DNA of 21,154 nucleotides from a virus: IMG/VR virus record IMGVR_UViG_3300049214_000108, positions 1-21,154 of that record. One strand, 5' to 3'. Positions within the stretch are counted from its first letter, which is position 1. Every line of letters starts with the position of its first letter. The notes below the pieces were generated by a model, which made no database searches, had not been told where the DNA came from, and worked only from the letters and a program-made list of their open reading frames with translations. The translations under genes were made by a program, and so were the position numbers. Shown here in pieces: positions 1 through 15,388 of this stretch.

Positions 1-1595
1 TCCATGACCGGGATTTTCGGGCAGGTTTGTCCTGCTGCACCACTGGATGTTGGTTGGCAAGTCGTGCTTAACGCCGCTAAATGCGTCCGCATTGTCGCCA
101 CATAGTTTTGCAACGTCGGCTGTCCATCGAGGGAATATGTAAACGGAATCGCGCCCCAAAAACCAATTCTTGCATGCTGCTGGTCGGCAAAGCCTTCGCA
201 TTTTCCGGCTAACATTTGGAAATCCCACAGTGTAATACCATCATTGCGAGAAATAGGCTGGCACACGATTGCGCTTGCGATATCTGGCTCGACGTTTCTT
301 CGGAGCACTTCGAAATAGATCGGCGATGCCTGCCCACCCCAGCAGTAATTCGAGAATGAAATCGGCGCTGCTGGGGTCGAAAGCAACCAAGACGCTCGGA
401 ACATCCAGCTCGAAAAGTTGTCATCTGGCGGTGCGCAAGAAATGCTGTCTCCCACGGCAATAACGTTTCGAACAGGCGCGTCTACGTGGGCGTCGATGCG
501 GATAAACGGATTATATGACGCCCCCTTCCAGCCTGTAGAGGCCGGGTTATCGGACACGTCGCCCGCACCGTATGCTTGCCCTTCGAGATAGTAAAATCCA
601 CCCAAACCTGAAGCGACGTTGGTATCATAGTTCCCGAGGCCTGTTGCCCCTCCCATCGCCGCCTGCATTATGGACGTAGTAGAACCCGTTAACGTCACGT
701 AAACAAAAAGCAAATGACTTCCGTTATTTCCAGAAGCCGCTTGAGGAATTGAGCCAAGCGGAACAAAGTCAGAATGTTGAAGCGTGAATACTTGAGGATT
801 GCTGTTCGCACTGCTCGGGTTCGGTTGGATCGTAAACGCTCTAGCTGTTCCGCTAAGATTTACATAGTCGCTGTCTGCCCCCTGGTTATCCCAATAAATC
901 TTCCCCTCTGGATAAGTGGCGGTTGTGTTGTTGGCGTAATTGCAAAATTGCAACGTCACTGTGCCACTTGCTGTCGCGGCCTGATTGAGCGTTACCGTGG
1001 TGCCGTTTGTGATAGTTGCAGTGGTGACTGGGTATGTCATAACTATTCCGGGACCAAACACAAAAATCGTGCCGCCACCCGTGGGAATTGTCGATGTGCT
1101 GGAACAGGTTACTGTTACCGAAGAAATAGTGGTCGTGCATTGCAAATATACGCTGTTTGTTGTCGGAAACATTTGCACTTGGCTGCTATTGGTGTTCCAT
1201 GTGCTTGGTATATAAGGATAAGCCGCGTAGCTATCGCTTGCCCACGCGGAAACGGAGTTGATTACAGCACCGCCTGCGGTCGAATATGGGTTTGCGAGAG
1301 AGACCGAAATGTCGTTGATCTGCGTCGGAACAGGTATTACATACATATATGTGGTGTATGTAGAATATTGGTTTGTGGTTTTCTGGGCCAGTTGTGTTGG
1401 GCCAAAAGTGGCTGTCATGCGATAACGGCTCGGAGCAAGTTCGGCAGCGGATAGGTTTTTCCGCGCCCAGGCGGGCGTCGGAACAGTTCCTTTTTGGGCC
1501 TGTATAGCCAATCCAATAGCTGCCGACACAGGTTGAGCAAAAACAGAGCGCGTGGATAACAGCAACAAGATTGTTGCAAAGATTCTGAGAAGCAT
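1..1595 (-). CDS. Secreted SGNH/GDSL-type hydrolase, partial at window edge
   Basis: The reading frame starts at the ATG at 1595-1593 and is still open at base 1, giving at least 531 residues. It begins with a clear signal peptide (MLLRIFATILLLLSTRSVFA, likely cut before QP at residue 21), so the product should leave the cytoplasm. Residues about 25-370 are Ser/Thr/Asn/Gly-rich and look beta-structured, as in phage adhesins. From about residue 375 an SGNH hydrolase pattern appears: VIAVGDSIS (GDS at 382-384) fits block I with the nucleophile Ser, NYCWGGQ may be block II, and ISRNDG (449-453) fits block III, although the usual GxND reads SRND. The Asp/His block would lie beyond the window. Family members are esterases or deacetylases acting on polysaccharide O-acetyl groups; the substrate here is unknown. 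The ATG overlaps the TGA of the upstream gene (TGATG). Codons are notably A/T-ending compared with the structural genes. Confidence 0.65.
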   Translation of the reverse strand, partial: MLLRIFATILLLLSTRSVFAQPVSAAIGLAIQAQKGTVPTPAWARKNLSAAELAPSRYRMTATFGPTQLAQKTTNQYSTYTTYMYVIPVPTQINDISVSLANPYSTAGGAVINSVSAWASDSYAAYPYIPSTWNTNSSQVQMFPTTNSVYLQCTTTISSVTVTCSSTSTIPTGGGTIFVFGPGIVMTYPVTTATITNGTTVTLNQAATASGTVTLQFCNYANNTTATYPEGKIYWDNQGADSDYVNLSGTARAFTIQPNPSSANSNPQVFTLQHSDFVPLGSIPQAASGNNGSHLLFVYVTLTGSTTSIMQAAMGGATGLGNYDTNVASGLGGFYYLEGQAYGAGDVSDNPASTGWKGASYNPFIRIDAHVDAPVRNVIAVGDSISCAPPDDNFSSWMFRASWLLSTPAAPISFSNYCWGGQASPIYFEVLRRNVEPDIASAIVCQPISRNDGITLWDFQMLAGKCEGFADQQHARIGFWGAIPFTYSLDGQPTLQNYVATMRTHLAALSTTCQPTSSGAAGQTCPKIPVM

Positions 1596-2272
1596 CACTG
1601 GCTAATCCCGTAGGTTATCGTTCCTGTGGAGTACGAGCTGCAAATAAGCTCGTAACTGACGGTTTTTGTAGTGCCGTTTTGCGATCCGGGCTCCGACCAC
1701 TGTTCGCTTGCTACCGTCGTGAAACTTTCAAGTTGCGACCCGTTTGCTGTGACTGGCAAATAAGGCGATCCGTTGATGCTTCTGGCTAGATAAACCGTGC
1801 CGCCCAGAGCCGCGCCAGGTGACTGGCTACTCGATCCATAAACGGCAACGTTAAATGTGCCGCCGTTTCGCGCGACATCAGGCGTGAAAGGCGCGCTTGC
1901 ACCCGTCCCGGTGAATGTGCCGGCCAAATTGTTTGCTGAAGAAACCGCCGTCGTTCCAATCGGCACTGCGCCATCGACGGTGAGAGTCGGCGAGACAAGA
2001 TTGCCCGAAGAGTTCGGAAACGCGACTTGCTGGCCTGATGTGGGCGCGGTGGCGTTAATCGTTCCGACGGAGGCGTCCCCGCCTGATCCGCCGCCGCCGG
2101 TCGGGCAAGGAACGGCGTTCTGGGTGCCGTCCGACTTTGGGCAGAGCTGCACGAACGCTTGCGCCGTCCCGTTGCCGGTCCCGTACGTCGTGTAGACGCT
2201 GCTGCTCGCCACAATTAGTACGGCGCTTGCCCCGAGGCATAAGCCCAAAGCCAACGGACGAAAGTTTCGCAT
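1595..2272 (-). CDS. Signal-anchored protein with phage decoration-like C-terminal domain
   Basis: This 225-residue protein has a basic start (MRNFRP) and a hydrophobic segment at about residues 7-26, so it is probably a signal anchor or signal peptide. Residues 11-56 are identical to a segment of the protein encoded at 4800-5297. A Gly-rich linker (PTGGGGSGGDA) follows. The last roughly 110 residues (FTGTGASAPFTPDV, GTVYLARSINGSPYLPVT, ASEQWSEPG, YSTGTITYGISQ) resemble a beta-sandwich domain I recall from phage virion decoration and fibre proteins; that match is from memory. An SD-like AAAGG lies 7 nt before the ATG, and the TGA overlaps the next ATG (TGATG), so it should be translated together with the hydrolase gene. 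No catalytic motif is visible. It could be a virion protein or an envelope-displayed one. Confidence 0.7.
   Translation of the reverse strand: MRNFRPLALGLCLGASAVLIVASSSVYTTYGTGNGTAQAFVQLCPKSDGTQNAVPCPTGGGGSGGDASVGTINATAPTSGQQVAFPNSSGNLVSPTLTVDGAVPIGTTAVSSANNLAGTFTGTGASAPFTPDVARNGGTFNVAVYGSSSQSPGAALGGTVYLARSINGSPYLPVTANGSQLESFTTVASEQWSEPGSQNGTTKTVSYELICSSYSTGTITYGISQ
2105..2242. repeat. 138-bp direct repeat, copy 1
   Basis: This stretch matches 5127-5264 in the same orientation at 136 of 138 positions by direct reading; the differences are at 2138 (t versus c) and 2153 (g versus a). It encodes residues 11-56 of the 1595-2272 protein. Both differences are synonymous, so the encoded segment is identical. 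The similarity stops at both ends, which marks an exchangeable N-terminal module. Confidence 0.95.
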
Positions 2273-2283
2273 AGGCGTGCCTT

Positions 2284-4800
2284 TCAGTTAAAACAGCCGC
2301 CCACAGCCACAGTGTAGGTGCTGCCAGACGACAGGTTGGAAACCGCGAGCGCGGGGCTCGGAAGGGCTGCGCCAGAGGCGCCGAATACTATTGTCCCATA
2401 CGGCTGGTTAGGCTGCGGCCGGAACAACGCCTGCGTTCCGCCGTTAGGCCATGTGATAGCAGAAAGCCCCTGGACCGCGAAAACTCTTTCTGAGTTGATT
2501 GATGCGGCGATCGGTAGCCCAAACTCCAAAACGCCGTAGGGGTGGGTCGGGCCACTGCTGGCAAAAGTTGGCGCGAATGTTTCAGTGAAATCGAAACACC
2601 CGTTACCCCACAAAAAACCGGCAGAACTGATCATGTTCGTTTGCCAGTTACCAAGGTTTTGCGGCACGACGGTTGGGGTAAACGTAGATTGCTCCGTCGA
2701 GTTTGCGGCCTGTGTGATCGCGCTTAGCGATGGGTTCAATACCCAACCGCTCCATTGAATCAACGGCTGAATCGTAGGGTCTATGTTGAGAGCTAGCGCC
2801 GAAAGGTTTTGCGGGTAAGTCAGCGCAAGATTATTGACAGTTGCCGTGCTGGCAATCTGCGTATCCACTCCCAGCGTTACGAGGCTTGGGGTTCGGAAAC
2901 TGCATGATAGACAGTCGCCTACATTCAAGCCGCCCCCATACGGATCGCCCCCGCTCGTCGCAAAATCCGCATCGACAATAAAATGGTTTCCAGTGCCCGT
3001 GTTAACGAGGTCAAGTGCCCAGGCGTTTATCGGCGGGTCGTTTAGAATCAGATTATGGAGCGTCATCACACTCGCGTAGCCCTGGTCGCCCGTTCCAGTG
3101 CAACCGATCTGGAAAAGGTCACCGCTGGGCGCGCCGCCCGGCGGTGCGATATCGACCGCGCCTTCGATATGCATACCTTCCACGATGATGTTATTTATTT
3201 GGCCGTTTGTGGCCGCACAAAACCGCACACCTGGGCCATAAGGTTGAAATGCTCGAACATCGTCCAGGGTTATATCCCCATAACTCGCTCGCGAGGACGT
3301 TGTTATCGAATTAAAATCAAGCTCCGCCAAGTTTGCGGTGCCTGAGTTCATACAATAAATATCTGTCATATGCGTTTCGCCCATATAACTGACGTGCTGG
3401 CCCGCGGCGACAATGCCAGCGCCCCCCTGGATACATGGGCCGGGGATAAATTCCATGTGTAAATGCTCGAAATTCGCGTGCTGCAATGCGTCGTAGCCAG
3501 CAACGCCAATCTGTCCGCCAGGCGCCGTGCGATCCCCCAGAATGCTGCAATCGGCAACCTCGTAAGCTACCGTCCCCTCAGAAATCGCTCCGCTATTGCC
3601 GGAAAAAGGCCGTGTGCTGCCTTGATTGATGCCATCAAACCCGATTGCAGCACCAGTGTAGCCGACACCCATGTCGATTATACTCGCGCCTTCACCTGCA
3701 CATTTGACGCCCTCGCTAAGCAGCAAAGGATTGGTCCCAGAAGCAAGGAAATAATGCCCGACCGGCACAAATACCAGCGCTGACTGACCTTGCGCCTTGA
3801 GCGCGTTTGCCGCCGCGTACGCGGCCGCGAAGGCAGGCTGGTCGTTTGCTCCAAATTTAAAATTTCCGCCCATTGTTTGCTTCCCCAGCCCCGAGAGAGT
3901 GCCGCCGCTGCCGCTTCCCGTAACCGCAGTAACCGCGTAATTACTCTGGTTAGGGAAGCTCGTGGGCGTGCTGCCTTGGCTGGAAATCAAAATTTTGCGT
4001 AGCCCGGTCGAGAGGTAAAACGACGCCCCTACTAAGTCACCTCCGCAGCCGCTTACGGGGTCCGACGTGCTACCTGTATTCGGGTTGATGGCGTAGCTGC
4101 CGCCATTGGAAATGGAGTTGATTGCCGAGATTGAACCATTCGTCGCCGTGACGTTATAATACGCAAAGTTAAAAGACTTTCGCTTAATTGGCGTGCCGCT
4201 GGTGCCGTATACGGTGAGCGTTCCGTCTGCGTTGTCTGCGCCGCCCTGAGCACAGTCGATACCTGAACCGGCGCTGGCGATTGACGCAGCAACCACCTGA
4301 CTGTTCAGCACCGTAAATGTCGGGGCGACGGTTTGGCCTGGCAACGAGATAGAAATGGTATCGCCAGCGTCGTATCCTGTGCCGGGGGAGACGATCCCGG
4401 CTTGGAAAACCGAATAGGTGGGAATCGGATCGGTCGCACACACGGACAGAGAGACATCATTGGAGTCGATTACCGAAATTATCGAACCGTTAAGGCTTGT
4501 CGTGTCCGTCGTCACATTGATCGGCAGGCCCACGTCCAGCGTTGTGAATCCTGGACCTTTGGCAGTCACGTCATTGCTGTTCAGGATGCAGCCCCCGCCG
4601 GGCATCGTTCCGTCGTTGTACGATAATTCGTTGCCCTGCGCGCCGAAAGATTTGACGGAGACCGTATTTCCAAAGAAGGCCAGATACGTACCATTTGGAA
4701 TCGTATACCTCGGCGCGCCCTGCCCACAAGCCACTACAGGCGCCAGCATCGTGCTCAGCATCAGCGCCGCACGGATCGGATGTTTCACAATGCCTGCCAT
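2284..4800 (-). CDS. Beta-helix tailspike-like protein with lipobox signal
   Basis: This 838-residue protein has the pectate-lyase-like right-handed beta-helix pattern of phage tailspikes and depolymerases. VSVKSFGAQGNE (47-58) corresponds to the usual VxVkdFGAkGdG start. The expected continuation appears only at 318-354 (ANDQPAFAAAYAAANAL, then LVFVPVGHYFLAS), so about 260 residues are inserted within the motif. The inserted part contains a DVGlPI...ISVI module and GTGYDAGDTISI plus GGSYA segments. The helix proper runs from about 340 to 660, followed by a C-terminal domain. The N-terminus is a signal sequence with K6, H7 and R10, a hydrophobic core, and VVAC at 22-25, which satisfies the lipobox rule with C25 as the lipidated residue. 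The ATG overlaps the upstream TGA (TGATG at 4802-4798). It probably binds or cleaves a host surface glycan; whether it is on virions or cells is unclear. Confidence 0.75.
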   Translation of the reverse strand: MAGIVKHPIRAALMLSTMLAPVVACGQGAPRYTIPNGTYLAFFGNTVSVKSFGAQGNELSYNDGTMPGGGCILNSNDVTAKGPGFTTLDVGLPINVTTDTTSLNGSIISVIDSNDVSLSVCATDPIPTYSVFQAGIVSPGTGYDAGDTISISLPGQTVAPTFTVLNSQVVAASIASAGSGIDCAQGGADNADGTLTVYGTSGTPIKRKSFNFAYYNVTATNGSISAINSISNGGSYAINPNTGSTSDPVSGCGGDLVGASFYLSTGLRKILISSQGSTPTSFPNQSNYAVTAVTGSGSGGTLSGLGKQTMGGNFKFGANDQPAFAAAYAAANALKAQGQSALVFVPVGHYFLASGTNPLLLSEGVKCAGEGASIIDMGVGYTGAAIGFDGINQGSTRPFSGNSGAISEGTVAYEVADCSILGDRTAPGGQIGVAGYDALQHANFEHLHMEFIPGPCIQGGAGIVAAGQHVSYMGETHMTDIYCMNSGTANLAELDFNSITTSSRASYGDITLDDVRAFQPYGPGVRFCAATNGQINNIIVEGMHIEGAVDIAPPGGAPSGDLFQIGCTGTGDQGYASVMTLHNLILNDPPINAWALDLVNTGTGNHFIVDADFATSGGDPYGGGLNVGDCLSCSFRTPSLVTLGVDTQIASTATVNNLALTYPQNLSALALNIDPTIQPLIQWSGWVLNPSLSAITQAANSTEQSTFTPTVVPQNLGNWQTNMISSAGFLWGNGCFDFTETFAPTFASSGPTHPYGVLEFGLPIAASINSERVFAVQGLSAITWPNGGTQALFRPQPNQPYGTIVFGASGAALPSPALAVSNLSSGSTYTVAVGGCFN

Positions 4801-5297
4801 CAGTTTGCTCCCATCGTAGCGCCATCACCAGATGCGCCATCCACCCAAAAATCCGATGATTGGTTGTCGGTGTATGTGATGCACACACCAGGCTGGAGCG
4901 GCGCACCCGTGCTCTGCGTGACGCTCGAACCGCCCACCCACACCGTGCCGGTATTATTGACCACCGTGGTGCCGCTGACATGCTGACCGCAGATGGTGAC
5001 ACCTTGTAGCAGCGTGTGCGCACCGAACTGGACCGCAATGCCCGTATTGGCGATGGTGACGGGGGTTACGTTGATTGGGGGCGCAGAGGGCGCGTTTATG
5101 GTGACGTTGCCTAAAGGAGTTGACGAGCAAGGAACGGCGTTCTGGGTGCCGTCCGACTTCGGGCAGAGCTGCACAAACGCTTGCGCCGTCCCGTTGCCGG
5201 TCCCGTACGTCGTGTAGACGCTGCTGCTCGCCACAATTAGTACGGCGCTTGCCCCGAGGCATAAAATTAAACCTAGCCGGCGCAAACAAACCTCCAT
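4800..5297 (-). CDS. Signal-anchored protein with fibre/decoration-like domain
   Basis: This 165-residue protein heads the leftward cassette. I place the start at the ATG at 5297-5295, because GAGG lies 6 nt upstream and because this aligns with the start of the paralogue at 1595-2272. An upstream in-frame ATG at 5381 would add 28 residues without similar support. The N-terminus (MEVCLRRLGLI, then a hydrophobic run) is a probable signal anchor. Residues 12-57 match the paralogue exactly. The C-terminal half (GVTICGQ, TGTVWVGGSSVTQSTGAPL, PGVCITY, SSDFWVDGAS) resembles short jelly-roll-like domains in phage head-decoration and fibre proteins; that match is from memory. The TGA overlaps the tailspike ATG (TGATG), which points to coupled translation and perhaps a joint structure. 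Four Cys residues in the mature part (38, 57, 102 and 138) would suit disulfides if exported. Confidence 0.7.
   Translation of the reverse strand: MEVCLRRLGLILCLGASAVLIVASSSVYTTYGTGNGTAQAFVQLCPKSDGTQNAVPCSSTPLGNVTINAPSAPPINVTPVTIANTGIAVQFGAHTLLQGVTICGQHVSGTTVVNNTGTVWVGGSSVTQSTGAPLQPGVCITYTDNQSSDFWVDGASGDGATMGAN
5127..5264. repeat. 138-bp direct repeat, copy 2
   Basis: This is the partner of 2105-2242, encoding residues 12-57 of the 4800-5297 protein. The two copies bracket the entire tailspike-like gene. Homologous recombination between them would remove 3,022 bp and fuse the first 57 codons of this gene in frame to the C-terminal domain of the downstream paralogue. Confidence 0.95.
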
Positions 5298-5323
5298 TAG
5301 CCGCCTCGGTAGCCGAAAATCGC

Positions 5324-5329
5324 TTGACA
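5324..5329 (+). promoter_or_regulatory. Candidate -35 element of rightward promoter
   Basis: A perfect TTGACA sits in the divergent intergenic region, about 95 bp before the scaffold start. The best -10 candidates (around CATATG/TATGCT at 5349-5356) match poorly or are spaced too far, so this is only a weak promoter candidate. Divergent transcription on both sides means promoters must lie in or near 5298-5424 unless the structural operon is read from elsewhere. Confidence 0.3.
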
Positions 5330-5368
5330 AGCCAGCTTTTCCGATTGTCATATGCTCTAACATTCGAC

Positions 5369-5388
5369 TAACCCCCGTCATAGGGTTA
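5369..5388. promoter_or_regulatory. Inverted repeat in divergent intergenic region
   Basis: TAACCC (5369-5374) and GGGTTA (5383-5388) form a 6-bp inverted repeat with an 8-base spacer, between the divergent leftward cassette and the scaffold gene. It could be an operator bound by a dimeric regulator or a short RNA hairpin in the 5' leader. Its location is suggestive, but six base pairs can occur by chance. Confidence 0.3.
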
Positions 5389-5424
5389 ATTTTCGATCCG
5401 GGTCACGTATCCCGCGGAGTGGCA

Positions 5425-6213
5425 ATGTCCGAATCCCTAGACGACGAGCTTGCGCAATTTTTGGAGGATGACGGTGGCGAAGAAACCAACGAAACCGAAG
5501 AAAATGGGCAAGGGCAAGGCGATGCCGAAGGGCAAGAAGCCGGGCCGGTCGATGAAGGGGCGCAAGGAAGCCGCAGAGGATCAGAAGGGGATGTAGAGCC
5601 GCCGGCTCGGCCCGCCCGCCGCGAAAACGATAGCGTTCGCGCCCTTCGGGAACGTGCGCAGGCAGCGGAAGCCAGAGCCCTAGTCTACGAACAGATGCTG
5701 GGGCAGCGTAATGCGGCGCCGCAGCTTCCTCAGAACGATCCGGTAGCGGCTGCGGCGGCGCAGGCGGCTGAAAACGAGCGGATCATGAACATGATGCCGC
5801 ACGAACAGGCGCAGTATTTCGCCAATCGGGCAGAGCAGCGTGTCCAGCAGCAGATTCAGGCCTTGGCGCGCCAGCAGCAGGATGCGCTCGACAGGATGCA
5901 CTTCGACACCATTAAGGCGACCAACAAAGTCGCCGCGAAGTACGAGTCGCAGGTCGAAAAGCTGGTAGCAGAGCAGGCCGCGCGGGGCGTGACCGTGCCG
6001 CGGAAAGCGGCGCTGGCGTATGTTTTGGGCGAAGCGGTTCTCGCCCGTGCGCCCGCCGCGGCAGCAAAGCAAAGGCAGGGTGCGGCGGAGAGGACAGCAG
6101 GCGCGACGGTGCGGCGCGGATCGCCAGGCGGCGATACGGCGGCCGAGCCGAGAGGTAACAGAGGCAACGATCTTGCGGCGCTGGAACGGCGCCTGGCAGG
6201 GAAAATCATCTAA
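5425..6213 (+). CDS. Capsid scaffolding protein
   Basis: This 262-residue acidic to Gln/Ala-rich protein lies directly upstream of the major capsid gene, the standard place for the scaffold that guides procapsid assembly and then leaves. The N-terminal 50 residues are very acidic and Gly/Glu/Gln-rich (DDELAQFLEDDGGEETNETE). Residues about 70-180 are helical and coiled-coil-like (RALRERAQAAEARALVYEQM; AEQRVQQQIQALARQQQDAL). The C-terminus is basic (RRLAGKII), as in scaffolds that dock on capsid protein through a basic tail. I choose the ATG at 5425, because GGAG at 5416-5419 is 5 nt upstream; an in-frame GTG at 5419 overlaps that SD. It begins the plus-strand structural operon. No protease motif is visible. 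The role rests on position and composition, not on a specific motif. Confidence 0.8.
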   Translation: MSESLDDELAQFLEDDGGEETNETEENGQGQGDAEGQEAGPVDEGAQGSRRGSEGDVEPPARPARRENDSVRALRERAQAAEARALVYEQMLGQRNAAPQLPQNDPVAAAAAQAAENERIMNMMPHEQAQYFANRAEQRVQQQIQALARQQQDALDRMHFDTIKATNKVAAKYESQVEKLVAEQAARGVTVPRKAALAYVLGEAVLARAPAAAAKQRQGAAERTAGATVRRGSPGGDTAAEPRGNRGNDLAALERRLAGKII

Positions 6214-6214
6214 C

Positions 6215-6237
6215 CCGGAGGTAATCCCTCCGGTTTT
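6215..6237 (+). terminator. GC-rich hairpin plus T tract between scaffold and capsid genes
   Basis: CCGGAGG (6215-6221) pairs with CCTCCGG (6227-6233) around a 5-base loop, and TTTT follows at 6234-6237. It begins one base after the scaffold stop codon and ends just before the capsid SD (GGAGGGG at 6238-6244). It looks like a weak intrinsic terminator or a processing/stability hairpin that could set the scaffold-to-capsid ratio. The T tract is short, so read-through is likely. Confidence 0.5.
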
Positions 6238-6252
6238 GGAGGGGTACCAACG

Positions 6253-7611
6253 GTGACAGTCACCAATACGTCCAGTGCGTTTCGCGGCGATGTCGTCAAT
6301 TACATCGAGCAGAAAACGCTCCCGCTCGCTCGCAAACAACTGGTGGTCTACCAGTTCGCCAACAAGGTAGAACTGCCTAAAGGCATGGGGAACCAATGGA
6401 CGGCGACACGGTACAACCGCCTGCCGCTCCCTTCCGCGCCGTTGGCCGAAGGCGTGCCGCCCAACGGCGAAAACATGACGGTAAGCCAAGTTACGGGCGT
6501 CGTACAGCAATGGGGCGACGCGGTTTACATCACCGACGTTGCCGAAATGCAGATTTTTCACCCGCTGTTTCAAGAAGCGATCAATCTCGTATCGCTTCAG
6601 GTCGCGGAAACGGACGAGCGACAAGCGTACCTCACGCTTGGCGGCGGAACACAGGTTAATTTCGTCAACCAGCGGGGCGCCCGCGCCTCGCTCGTGGCCG
6701 GCGACGTACTTGACCCCCACACCGTCAACCGCACGTCCGCGGCTCTGATGACCGTTGGCGCGCCCCGGTTCAACGGCGACGAAAACACCGACGAAATGGT
6801 CGATATCCGCGGCGGCGGGCGAAACGCCAGCCAAAACCCCCGCGTTCACGCGCATTACGTCGCTGTAGTCCACCCCCTTGTGGCCGCCGATTTTTCGGAA
6901 AATCCGACCGTGCAGACGGCATGGTCCTATTCCGATATCAACCGGCTTTACAATTTCGAAACCGGCGAGTGGCGCAGCATCACGTTCTGCGAATCGAACC
7001 TGGTGCCCTTCTGGACCGGGGTTGCCGCGGTCAACGGCGGCACCGCGACCACGGGCGGTTCGCTGGCGACGACCACGACCTATTACTTGCAGGTGACGGG
7101 CCAAAACGGCACCACGCAGTACGAGAGCCAGATCTATCAGGTCGATACCGGGATCGCGATCGGGTCGAACACCGCGATTTCCTACGTGCTGCCGAGCACG
7201 CCTAACTACACGTATTCGGTCTATATCGGCACCAGCGCGACCGGCGTTAGCAACCTGGCGCTGACCAGCAGCACCTATGCGCCGAGCAGCGGGCCGTATG
7301 CCGGCGTTGCGACGCAGTTGCCGCCGGGTGCCACGGTGCTTTTGACTGCGATCGGACCGCAGCAGGTGCCTCCGGCGGCGCCGGCCTCAGGTATTACCGT
7401 GTTCCCGACTTTCGTTTTTGGCCGCGATTACTACAGCATGATAAAGCTGGATGGGCTGAAGATGACGTATCTTACGCAGGCCGACAAATTCGATATTCTG
7501 AACCAGAAACGGGTAGTGGGCTGGAAAAAGTTCTGGGGAATGGTCATCACCAATCAGCAGTTTGGCGCGCGGATCGAAAGCACTAGCAATTTCACCGCCA
7601 CTTTCGGTTAA
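6253..7611 (+). CDS. Major capsid protein, N4-gp56 family, with Ig-like insertion
   Basis: This 452-residue protein forms the icosahedral head shell. Its N-terminal half has the N4-gp56 family signature: EQKTLPLARKQLVVYQFANK (19-38), LPKGMGNQWTATRYNRLPLP (41-60), APLAEGVPPNG, and VVQQWGDAVYITDVAEM (83-99). The family's C-terminal part reappears at 380-452 (VFPTFVFGRDYYSMIKLDG, LNQKRVVGWKKFWGM). Between them, residues about 257-378 form a Thr/Ser/Gly-rich Ig/Fn3-like domain (TYYLQVTGQNGTTQYES; YTYSVYIGTSATG) of the type phages use as surface decoration. The start is GTG at 6253 with GGAGGGG 8 nt upstream. It follows the scaffold and a hairpin, and precedes a run of small virion-type genes. The family assignment is by motif recognition. 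Confidence 0.92.
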   Translation: MTVTNTSSAFRGDVVNYIEQKTLPLARKQLVVYQFANKVELPKGMGNQWTATRYNRLPLPSAPLAEGVPPNGENMTVSQVTGVVQQWGDAVYITDVAEMQIFHPLFQEAINLVSLQVAETDERQAYLTLGGGTQVNFVNQRGARASLVAGDVLDPHTVNRTSAALMTVGAPRFNGDENTDEMVDIRGGGRNASQNPRVHAHYVAVVHPLVAADFSENPTVQTAWSYSDINRLYNFETGEWRSITFCESNLVPFWTGVAAVNGGTATTGGSLATTTTYYLQVTGQNGTTQYESQIYQVDTGIAIGSNTAISYVLPSTPNYTYSVYIGTSATGVSNLALTSSTYAPSSGPYAGVATQLPPGATVLLTAIGPQQVPPAAPASGITVFPTFVFGRDYYSMIKLDGLKMTYLTQADKFDILNQKRVVGWKKFWGMVITNQQFGARIESTSNFTATFG

Positions 7612-12547: not shown

Positions 12548-13681
12548 ATGCCTTCGATATCCGTCCCTTACACTTTCTCGAACGGCGGCACCAACACAGC
12601 CGACGCGAATCAGGTTAACGCCAATTTCGCAGCGATTGTCTCCGGCGTGAACGGGCTATCAATCCCAACGACACCCGTTACAATCGCGAACGGGGGTACG
12701 GGCGGCAATTCCGTGCAAACCGCGCTCACGGCCCTGGGCCTGGGCGCGGGCATCATAATTTCCTGCACCGCCACCACGTCGGGCAGCGGGACGATCGCCA
12801 TTGTCGCGACGACGGCCGCAGCCGCGCCAACGGTAAGCTCCTATGAAGACGGACTCGCCCTTCTTTTTCGGATGCCGAACACCGCGTTGACAGGATCGGA
12901 GTTTACGATCGCGTATACGCCGAACGGCGGTGCGGCGCTCGGCGCAGTGCCGTTGTACGACGCTGGCGCGGAAAACCTGATTAGCTCGACCGCAGCCAAC
13001 CAAATTATCCTGGCTCTTTACTCGGCGGCAGCCGGCGTTTTCTGCTTGGTCAACACGCCGCCGTCCGCCTTCAACAGCGCCAGGTTCGCGCAATTCCTTC
13101 AATCCAGCAGCACGCAGACATGGACGGCCCCGGCAGGCGTGACAGCAGCTTATGCAACCGCGTGCGCGTCAGGCGGGGCCGGCGGCGGTTCGCAGTCAAA
13201 CACAAAATCGGGAGGCGGGGGCGGGGGCGGGGGCGACTCGATCGTAAAACAAATCGTCAACGTCACTGCGGGGGGGATTTATAACATCAACGTAGGCGTG
13301 TTTGGTGCGGGCGGTGCTGGTGCCAACGGCGGAAACGGCAACCCTACCAATATGATAAGCGTTTCGTCCGGCACAACGCTTGTGGCCCTCGCTGCCGGTC
13401 TCGGGGGCACGGCCGGCACGAATACGAGTGCTGCGCCAGGCGGTAATCAAGGCGGTAGCGGCGGTTCCAACGGGCGTGAAGGGTTCTATGCGGGAAGCCT
13501 GTCGGTCGGCGGCGCTGGTGGCGATTGTATTCTCGGAAAAGGAGGCACGCCGGCTTTCGATAGCCAAAATGGCCAAAATGGCCAGGGATTCGGCAGCGGC
13601 GGTGCAGGAGCTTCCGGGAGTAGCGCCGGTAGCACAACCGGCGGCAGCGGTGCGCCAGGGTATTTTCTTTTAGAGTGGTAA
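12548..13681 (+). CDS. Tail fibre / receptor-binding protein with glycine-rich tip
   Basis: This 377-residue protein starts at ATG 12548 with GGGAG 8 nt upstream. An N-terminal segment (TADANQVNANFAAIVSGVN) is followed by PVTIANGGTGGNSVQTALTA, close to the VANGGTGxxxxxxAxxxLGLG motif of phage tail fibres. Residues about 75-190 are beta-rich. After SSTQTWTAPAGVTAAYA (about 188-204) the rest is Gly-rich with poly-Gly runs and NGGNGN, GGSGGSNG and QNGQNGQG repeats, and it ends in GAPGYFLLEW, the usual last strand of glycine-rich tip domains. Such tips form polyglycine-helix sandwiches whose loops contact the host receptor. It follows the connector genes and precedes the lysis-type genes. The gene carries G5 and G7 tracts that could slip. 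Confidence 0.8.
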   Translation: MPSISVPYTFSNGGTNTADANQVNANFAAIVSGVNGLSIPTTPVTIANGGTGGNSVQTALTALGLGAGIIISCTATTSGSGTIAIVATTAAAAPTVSSYEDGLALLFRMPNTALTGSEFTIAYTPNGGAALGAVPLYDAGAENLISSTAANQIILALYSAAAGVFCLVNTPPSAFNSARFAQFLQSSSTQTWTAPAGVTAAYATACASGGAGGGSQSNTKSGGGGGGGGDSIVKQIVNVTAGGIYNINVGVFGAGGAGANGGNGNPTNMISVSSGTTLVALAAGLGGTAGTNTSAAPGGNQGGSGGSNGREGFYAGSLSVGGAGGDCILGKGGTPAFDSQNGQNGQGFGSGGAGASGSSAGSTTGGSGAPGYFLLEW

Positions 13682-14005: not shown

Positions 14006-14296
14006 ATGGACCCGAACGCAGCGGCGAGTTTGAGCACTGTTCTGACGGCGCTTGGCTTCGGCCAACACGTATCGGGCATCATCAGCCTCATTGTCGCGGC
14101 CATGGGCTTGATCCAGGCAGCACTCATTTTTCTGCCGGTGGCTCACGCGACTTCGCCCGGCTGGTACCAAACCCTTTACGGTGTGCTGGCCAGGATCGCG
14201 CTGAATGTCGGCAAAAACGCGCCCAGCCCACCCGCCGGCACGGTGCCTGCCGGCGGTGTGGTGCCGACGCCCCCGGCGTTAAAAACGTCCAGTTAG
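14006..14296 (+). CDS. Holin-like small membrane protein
   Basis: This 96-residue protein starts at ATG 14006 with GGAGG 6 nt upstream. It has one strong hydrophobic segment (residues about 24-45, GIISLIVAAMGLIQAALIFL), a second amphipathic or weakly hydrophobic helix (GWYQTLYGVLARIALNVGK, 52-70), and a Pro/Gly-rich C-terminal tail ending KTSS. Size, topology and position next to another small membrane protein and a lipoprotein fit a phage holin that opens the inner membrane at lysis. No endolysin gene is visible in the window, so the call remains tentative. Similar small membrane proteins with an ALNVG motif are known to me from phages but lack proven function. Confidence 0.6.
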   Translation: MDPNAAASLSTVLTALGFGQHVSGIISLIVAAMGLIQAALIFLPVAHATSPGWYQTLYGVLARIALNVGKNAPSPPAGTVPAGGVVPTPPALKTSS

Positions 14297-14306
14297 GAGA
14301 CATGCC

Positions 14307-14648
14307 GTGAAAAACATTTTTCTAGCCGCTGCGCTGTTACCTTTGGCTGGTTGCAACGCAAGCAGTTCGACAACCGCAACCGCGTTGCAATCCCAGGCAG
14401 GCCAGCTTTTTTGCGCAATCGACACCGCGGGCGGCGGCCAGATCGTGGCGGGCGTGATTGACGCGGACGCAACGGCGGCGGGCGGCGCGACGGCGGGAGA
14501 AGTTGCGGTGCTGGCGACCAATCTCGCGCAGGCGACCGTGCAGAATTATTGCCAAAAGGCGGCGCAAGCGGTAGGGGGTGTCTCAGGTGTGCCGGTGTCA
14601 CCGCCCGCAACGCCGGTCGCCAACGTAGCAATTCACGAAGGGAGCTAA
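14307..14648 (+). CDS. Small lipoprotein, possible spanin-type (o-spanin/Rz1-like)
   Basis: This 113-residue protein starts at GTG 14307 with AGGAG (14295-14299) 7 nt upstream, overlapping the holin-like stop codon. A nearby ATG at 14302 opens only two codons. The N-terminus is a lipoprotein signal: K2, a hydrophobic core (IFLAAALLP) and a perfect LAGC lipobox at 13-16, so Cys16 should be lipidated and the mature protein held in a membrane. The mature part is Ala/Thr/Gly-rich with two Cys (LFCAIDTAGGG; VQNYCQKAAQ) and a Pro-rich tail. In a lysis region this suggests an outer-membrane spanin or a surface-exclusion lipoprotein. The expected nested i-spanin frame is not evident. Confidence 0.65.
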   Translation: MKNIFLAAALLPLAGCNASSSTTATALQSQAGQLFCAIDTAGGGQIVAGVIDADATAAGGATAGEVAVLATNLAQATVQNYCQKAAQAVGGVSGVPVSPPATPVANVAIHEGS

Positions 14649-14842: not shown

Positions 14843-14997
14843 TGTTCTGGATAGGGCTGTCGCTGGGGGGAATGGTTGGACTCTTCGCCGCAGCGATATG
14901 TCTCGCAACAAAAGGCCCTGACTTTCGGGTTCCAACCGATCCTGGACCTCCTGGTCAACGACCGGCTGGGCGACCTCGTAAAAACCCATTGGGCTGA
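14842..14997 (+). CDS. Small single-span membrane protein frame
   Basis: This 51-residue frame starts at ATG 14842 in a TGATG overlap. Residues 1-23 are strongly hydrophobic (MFWIGLSLGGMVGLFAAAI), and the tail is Pro/Gly/Arg-rich (PGPPGQRPAGRPRKNPLG), giving an N-terminal membrane helix with a basic cytoplasmic or periplasmic tail. It overlaps the GNAT-like gene by about 120 bp in another frame, so most of its tail is constrained by that gene. It may belong to the lysis group; function is unknown, and it may be unexpressed. Confidence 0.4.
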   Translation: MFWIGLSLGGMVGLFAAAICLATKGPDFRVPTDPGPPGQRPAGRPRKNPLG

Positions 14998-15388
14998 AAT
15001 TGGCGCGGACAAAGCCGCTGTCCCGCTTGCCGTGAACTGGGGCGCGGTGCTCCAAAGAGAAGCCGCCGGCACTCTGCGGGCTTTTACCGCCCGTCGAGAC
15101 GGCGCCCTCGTCGGTTATATCGGGTTCAATTTTTTTTGTCCCGACCGACACACGGGCACCCTCTACATCCGCGACGAAACGATATGGGTCGTGCCGACAG
15201 AAGCACATCGCGGCCTCGTGTGGCGCGCGATGTGGCAGGCGGCGGTGCCGATGTTGCCGCGCCCGTGCAAACTGATGGCGGGGCTGACCATGGGGCGGGA
15301 CAAGCGGCACACGCGCGTTTTGGCCAAGGTATTGAAACGGCTTGGACTGCGCCCGATGGAAATGGTAATGGGGGCGTATCTGGAATAG
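14876..15388 (+). CDS. GNAT-like acetyltransferase-fold phage protein
   Basis: This 170-residue protein matches from memory a GNAT-type family widespread beside podovirus virion genes. TFGFQPILDLLVNDRLGDLV and HWAEIGADKAAVPLAVNW (about 39-56) fit the family N-terminus. EAAGTLRAFTARRDGALVGY, then IGFNFF, corresponds to core strands, TLYIRDETIWVVPTEAHRG (about 95-113) to strand 4 and the acetyl-CoA loop region, and VLKRLGLRPMEMVMGAYLE to the end. The canonical Q/RxxGxG/A loop is degenerate (AHRGLVWRAMW), so catalytic activity is doubtful. The only plausible start is TTG 14876, because a stop lies in frame at 14852-14854 and no ATG or GTG follows early. Its place before the ejection-protein genes recalls T7 gene 13. 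Confidence 0.65.
   Translation: MDSSPQRYVSQQKALTFGFQPILDLLVNDRLGDLVKTHWAEIGADKAAVPLAVNWGAVLQREAAGTLRAFTARRDGALVGYIGFNFFCPDRHTGTLYIRDETIWVVPTEAHRGLVWRAMWQAAVPMLPRPCKLMAGLTMGRDKRHTRVLAKVLKRLGLRPMEMVMGAYLE

What the first reader, a model, noticed from the sequence alone, without database searches (positions are those of the whole stretch)
1..5297. Four-gene phage cassette whose products all carry export signals
Directly seen: all four minus-strand proteins begin with a basic residue plus a hydrophobic core, one with a classic cleavable signal (SVFA|QP) and one with a lipobox (VVAC). Their C-terminal parts look like phage adhesin, decoration, tailspike and SGNH hydrolase domains, which normally assemble in the cytoplasm without signals. 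This suggests a surface-display system: the phage may coat the infected or lysogenised cell with glycan-modifying adhesins (superinfection exclusion or lysogenic conversion), or release them as free depolymerases. The divergent orientation fits separate control from the virion operon.
Basis: partly seen in the sequence, partly recalled or inferred. Interest (0 to 1): 0.75.

Follow-up and report, generated by a model that had tools for sequence, protein, structure and literature searches.

The report
Phage tail fibres carrying export signals
A whole group of uncultured short-tailed phages, and one sequenced Bradyrhizobium phage, write their tail-fibre-like proteins with secretion signals and paired cysteines, which suggests that these proteins are sent out of the cytoplasm and oxidised in the cell envelope, a route not described for tailed phages in the papers I could search.

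Summary
All four minus-strand genes (P1 5297-4800, P2 4800-2284, P3 2272-1595, P4 1598-3, cut by the contig end) begin with Sec-type signals; among 19 other genes only one lipoprotein does. The P2 'lipobox' is doubtful: its Cys is not conserved in relatives, while a G|Q signal-peptidase-I site is.

It is not a local oddity. In about 80 relatives, fibre-like genes carry signals very often (25 of 37 in the fibre family; 4 of 640 core virion genes). Homologues exist with and without the signal, and the mature N-terminus then coincides with the start of the signal-less form. An independent test agrees: signal-bearing proteins have about twice the cysteine, almost always an even number (59 even : 2 odd, against 50 : 27), as expected for disulfides made outside the cytoplasm. 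The cassette lies at a receptor-binding/lysis locus between portal and scaffold, inverted in this clade.

So export is well supported. Most likely these are fibres or spikes that mature in the periplasm and join virions at or after lysis. A purely secreted role, including superinfection exclusion, stays open. Lysogenic conversion is unlikely (1 of 20 relatives has a clear integrase). Virion incorporation is inferred, not shown.

The parts
4800..5297 (-). P1: short exported protein (165 aa) = signal peptide + linker with Cys pair (LCPKSDGTQNAVPC) + small C-terminal domain with a second Cys pair
   Evidence: related by linker to L005/L006/L009 and L011 first cassette genes
5223..5297 (-). signal peptide of P1, cleavage inferred ASS|SVY from alignment with L006 ALA|QPY
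   Evidence: inference
2284..4800 (-). P2: 838-aa tailspike-like exported protein, 14 Cys in the mature part; homologue of the second cassette gene of L011
   Evidence: (tblastn E 2.5e-4); no Pfam/PHROG/PDB match
4723..4800 (-). signal peptide of P2; SPase I site ACG|Q preferred over the lipobox VVAC
   Evidence: G|Q kept, Cys not kept in L006 and L011
1595..2272 (-). P3: 225-aa exported fibre/decoration-like protein sharing signal and linker with P1
2201..2272 (-). signal peptide of P3 (ASS|SVY)
   Evidence: inference
3..1598 (-). P4: exported protein with an SGNH-hydrolase-like C-terminal part (GDSIS, ..SRND), truncated by the contig end
   Evidence: no family match; AF2 uninformative
1536..1598 (-). 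signal peptide of P4 (SVFA|QP); ATG at 1595 is an alternative start
12548..13681 (+). g13: signal-less member of the fibre family whose relatives in sister phages carry signal peptides
5419..7611 (+). scaffold and major capsid genes that flank the cassette (portal lies on the other side in relatives)

Best explanation
The four genes are the receptor-binding (fibre/spike/decoration) part of a locus that in this phage group also holds the lysis genes, placed between portal and scaffold. Their products are made as pre-proteins with Sec signal peptides, cross the inner membrane, lose the signal at an A-x-A/G/S site, and fold with disulfide bonds in the periplasm. At or shortly after lysis they meet the virions that were assembled in the cytoplasm and dock through their mature N-terminal segment, giving oxidised fibres or spikes. 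Shown by sequence: the signals, the locus, homologues with and without signals, and the even-cysteine signature. Inferred: export, cleavage and disulfides in the cell. Inferred and weaker: docking on the virion after export.
For: Signals in 4 of 4 genes. Fibre family: 25 of 37 with signals against 4 of 640 core virion genes, Fisher 1.7e-32. Near-identical pairs with and without the signal (L048 MKKLASILLMSLGFLCGPAAA|QIVGTLPFQLQNGTTADATQVMADFNKI; L020 MTTIIGTLPFQLQNGTTADATQVMADFNKI). The distance from the cleavage site to the N-terminal motif (13-16 residues where the site is clear) equals that from Met to the motif in signal-less members (12-18), so the signal is simply prepended. Even cysteine counts: 59:2 in signal-bearing against 50:27 in signal-less proteins after removal of relatives above 40% identity; 44 of 46 protein families; Cys content 1.51% against 0.67%. 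An N-domain Cys pair occurs in 13 of 22 signal-bearing and 0 of 11 signal-less fibres, never singly. In G008 and G009 every fibre candidate I could recognise bears a signal. Bradyrhizobium phage ppBdUSDA122-1: two tail-fibre-type proteins with signals and a Cys pair that signal-less Rhizobium phage homologues (TM16, I4) lack.
Against: No experiment: neither cleavage nor presence in virions is shown. SignalP/DeepTMHMM could not be run; the predictor is my own rule set. On the capsid tree the signal of the g13 fibre family changes only twice and its Cys pair once, so the within-family counts are not independent events. P1-P4 themselves match no annotated family. P3 has an odd number of Cys (3) and P4 is truncated. 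How exported fibres would reach cytoplasmic virions is unexplained except by lysis.
Confidence: 0.5

Rival explanations
1. The proteins are exported and disulfide-bonded but never join virions: they act on the infected cell or its surroundings, for example by masking receptors (superinfection exclusion), trimming exopolysaccharide so progeny escape, or as released depolymerases and decoys.
For: Same export evidence. Genes sit with lysis genes. The window keeps a signal-less fibre (g13) that could do the virion's work. A bacterial tailspike-fold enzyme with a Tat signal, WceF, works in a biofilm (PMC7949094).
Against: In G008 and G009 no signal-less fibre candidate was recognised. Mature N-termini match those of signal-less fibres, and P1/P3 share a linker ahead of different bodies, as docking modules do.
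Confidence: 0.33
2. The N-termini are uncleaved signal anchors or lysis-associated membrane tethers that hold the proteins at the inner membrane facing the periplasm.
For: One hydrophobic segment per protein; neighbouring TM and lipoprotein genes belong to lysis modules.
Against: Canonical A-x-A/G/S sites follow the core and +1 is often Q; sites align between non-identical proteins.
Confidence: 0.09
3. Lysogenic conversion or moron genes expressed from a prophage.
For: Divergent strand in this clade; one relative (G002, the L011 contig) has an integrase-like gene above cut-off.
Against: 19 of 20 relatives have no integrase above the cut-off; the genome-collection scan gave only two contigs of about 41-43 kb, of phage-genome size; the genes are the only fibre-like set in several records and lie on the late strand in sister phages.
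Confidence: 0.04
4. Chance or artefact: hydrophobic N-termini from wrong start codons or composition.
For: Starts of P1 and P4 are ambiguous (ATG 5297 or upstream; GTG 1598 or ATG 1595); P4's score was reached by 7% of shuffles.
Against: Recurrence in homologues, 4 of 640 control rate, and the independent cysteine parity.
Confidence: 0.03

Closest known systems
Tail fibres/tailspikes of cytoplasmically assembled tailed phages (T7 gp17, P22 gp9)
   Same: Relatives of the cassette proteins match PHROG tail-fibre families and sit in tail and receptor-binding loci
   Different: T7 gp17 and P22 tailspike have no signal; here signals are the rule and cysteines come in even numbers
Filamentous phage coat proteins (pIII, pVIII; own knowledge)
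   Same: Virion proteins made with Sec signal peptides; pIII is disulfide-bonded
   Different: Inoviruses assemble at the membrane; these are capsid/portal/scaffold podovirus-type phages
WceF of Pantoea stewartii (PMC7949094)
   Same: Tailspike-like protein exported by a bacterial signal
   Different: Bacterial gene, Tat signal, crystal structure known; not a phage gene
Lambda Lom (PMC12309495)
   Same: Phage protein with signal peptide encoded among tail genes
   Different: Outer-membrane beta-barrel made by lysogens, not a fibre
Bradyrhizobium phage ppBdUSDA122-1 tail fibre WAX24263.1
   Same: Annotated tail fibre with signal and 18 Cys
   Different: Unrelated phage type with a tail tape measure gene; signal not remarked in the record

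Membership tests
Sec/SPase I signal peptide | positive n-region, uncharged hydrophobic core, small residues at -3 and -1 | tested here: met
   P1-P4
Sec/SPase I signal peptide | cleavage in the cell and translocation | not testable with these tools
   needs N-terminal sequencing; cysteine parity is indirect support
Bacterial lipoprotein (P2) | lipobox [LVI][ASTVI][GAS]C | tested here: met
   VVAC at residues 22-25
Bacterial lipoprotein (P2) | lipobox Cys conserved in homologous or positional relatives | tested here: not met
   L006 LARG|Q, L011 GYG|Q; only L005/L009 keep Cys
Tailed-phage fibre/tailspike | gene in the receptor-binding locus of the late region | tested here: met
   between portal and scaffold in the window's clade and sisters
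Tailed-phage fibre/tailspike | sequence match to fibre families | tested here: inconclusive
   P1-P4 none; relatives L006 and L048 weak PHROG tail matches; P3 to fibre-like L002 E 2.8e-4
Tailed-phage fibre/tailspike | present in virions | not testable with these tools
   needs virion proteomics
Pectate-lyase-type beta-helix (P2) | fold or Pfam match | tested here: inconclusive
   no Pfam match; AF2 pLDDT 32 (111)
SGNH hydrolase (P4) | GDS, Gly/Asn blocks and DxxH | tested here: inconclusive
   GDSIS and SRND seen; DxxH lies beyond the contig end; no Pfam match
Lysogenic-conversion gene | temperate phage | tested here: not met
   window truncated; 19 of 20 relatives without integrase above cut-off

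The most novel reading that the evidence does not exclude
A tailed-phage assembly route in which receptor-binding fibres are matured outside the cytoplasm by the host Sec and disulfide machinery and loaded onto virions only at or after lysis ('late arming'), widespread in a large uncultured podovirus-type group and arisen separately in at least one other phage type.
Probability: 0.45. Interest if true: 0.9.

Novelty: new variant of a known kind. Interest (0 to 1): 0.74.

Why it matters
Tailed-phage virions are taken to be built wholly in the reducing cytoplasm, and lack of a signal peptide has been used as support for phage origin of a binding protein (PMC6199706). If whole phage groups export and oxidise their fibres, that assumption fails, annotation pipelines will misfile such genes as bacterial secreted proteins, infection would depend on host Sec/Dsb functions, and assembly would have a step outside the cytoplasm. 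The cysteine-parity test offers a cheap way to find such proteins in other genomes.

Tried and rejected
Relatives of P2 and P4 in viral contigs: none; with P2+L011 only L011's own contig. Cultured-phage tblastn with P2, P4, P1's domain, an N-terminal fibre peptide and the L026 fibre: none. PDB sequence search: nothing usable. AlphaFold of P4 alone and of P2 with one homologue: pLDDT 32, so no fold search was made. PF00940 search: its control did not ring, not used. Host from genome contigs: two MAG contigs only (an Acetobacteraceae and a Burkholderiales bin), weak. Tat pathway: no RR in P2-P4; P1 has one RR without the Tat consensus. Promoter scan upstream of P1: nothing above chance. Rfam: nothing in 1-6300. 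Independent-pairs test of signal against Cys pair in the g13 family: too few events. Alignment of the P1/P3 linker with signal-less L002/L003/L010 first genes is suggestive only. Ten literature searches: no report of signal peptides on tailed-phage fibres (110, on in vitro attachment of P22 spikes, found nothing).

Full report
What is there. The window is a 21,154-base virus record with a plus-strand late operon: scaffold, major capsid (PHROG 1357, E 4.5e-32), tail genes, a fibre (g13) and internal virion proteins. Upstream lie four minus-strand genes, P1-P4. They have no match in Pfam, PHROGs, PDB sequences or cultured phages (P1's C-terminal domain, P2 and P4 were searched there) at useful significance. 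Each starts with a signal-peptide-like N-terminus. Of 19 other genes only the small lipoprotein at 14307-14648 scores similarly; two others fall just below my threshold of 5.

The lipobox. P2 fits the lipobox pattern, but the equivalent second gene in relatives reads ...LPKLACG|QSS (L005)...LPELARG|QSS (L006) and ...LPGYG|QSF (L011). A G|Q SPase I site is kept and the Cys is not. Only the L011 gene is a demonstrable homologue of P2 (E 2.5e-4); the L005/L006 gene is equivalent by position. The alignment of P1/P3 with L006 and L011 likewise puts the cleavage at ASS|SVY.

The locus. Capsid-based searches gave about 80 related contigs. In the window's own clade the interval between portal and scaffold holds an inverted cassette of one or more fibre-like genes, usually with signals, plus lysis genes: an endolysin-like protein (PHROG 873) in L002 and the same kind of gene in L003 and L011, and a GH108 endolysin, TM gene and lipoprotein in L006. 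In sister phages (G008, G009, G015) the same interval holds signal-bearing genes on the virion strand. The divergent orientation is therefore a clade feature, not evidence of separate function. Some relatives have no cassette there and carry signal-bearing fibres elsewhere, and a few members of the window clade (L002, L010) carry signal-less fibres at the locus.

With and without signals. The family of the window's g13 has 37 members here: 25 score as signal-bearing (one more, L056, was missed by the rule set but reads MKKLLLVLALLFAPTGAPAQ), against 4 of 640 members of twelve core virion families. L020 and L048 differ at the N-terminus essentially by the signal. In members with a clear cleavage site the mature N-terminus lies 13-16 residues before the shared motif, where signal-less members have their Met at 12-18. 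On the capsid tree this is as few as two changes of state, so counts within the family are not independent evidence.

Cysteine parity. Exported proteins that form disulfides tend to have even cysteine counts. After removing relatives above 40% identity, signal-bearing proteins of at least 150 aa with two or more cysteines are 59 even: 2 odd in the mature part; signal-less proteins are 50: 27 (Fisher 1.8e-6); cysteine content is 1.51% against 0.67%. Taking one member per protein family, 44 of 46 are even. The signal predictor is used only to sort the proteins; the cysteine count itself is independent of it. In the window P1 has 4 and P2 14 mature cysteines, P3 has 3, and P4 is truncated at 9.

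Outside the group. T7 and P22 fibres/spikes have no signal. Two Manatee Spring phage records with distant capsids have signal-bearing genes near their tail genes, at least one with a fibre-type N-terminus. In Bradyrhizobium phage ppBdUSDA122-1 the annotated tail fibre (18 Cys) and its upstream neighbour both have signals. Its fibre's C-terminal part matches fibres of many cultured phages. Its neighbour aligns along the N-terminal half with signal-less Rhizobium phage proteins encoded directly after tail protein J, and has a Cys pair (ASC...GLCW) where they have none (ATG/LTE...GQTW/GMAW).

Mechanism. Export and oxidation are the best-supported inference. That the products end on virions follows from three points: mature N-termini match signal-less fibres, P1/P3 share a linker in front of different bodies, and G008/G009 show no other fibre candidate. 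All three are indirect. P22 tailspikes are known to add to finished particles in vitro (own knowledge, not found in the library), so attachment after lysis is feasible. Purely secreted roles remain possible. Lysogenic conversion is unlikely given integrases above cut-off in 1 of 20 relatives, though these records may be incomplete.

Known or new. The full-text searches found no report of Sec signals on tailed-phage fibres; one paper uses absence of signals on phage binding proteins as support for phage origin. Subscription papers and preprints were not searched, so novelty is provisional.

Noticed in passing
window 5285-5124 and 2264-2102 (minus strand): About 160 nearly identical bases encode signal plus linker of P1 and P3 in front of different C-terminal parts: a recent module duplication or recombination point.
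   Followed up: partly
window 14006-14648 (+): Small TM protein followed by a lipoprotein gene (GTG start, LAG|C), conserved in L002/L004 and, on the minus strand beside a GH108 endolysin, a similar pair in L006; possibly holin and outer-membrane spanin.
   Followed up: no
L006 5711-5983, L026 5872-6093, L032 3889-4107: Very short (72-90 aa) signal-bearing proteins ending the fibre cassettes (MKKLLLLLLLATPAQA|Q...); function unknown.
   Followed up: no
L088 9131-11728 and 7647-9095 (Bradyrhizobium phage ppBdUSDA122-1): Annotated tail fibre and its neighbour carry signal peptides; the neighbour's Cys pair is absent from Rhizobium phage homologues.
   Followed up: partly
window 14876-15388 (+): Conserved protein of unknown function (about 160 aa) between lysis-like and internal virion genes in many relatives; not characterised here.
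   Followed up: no
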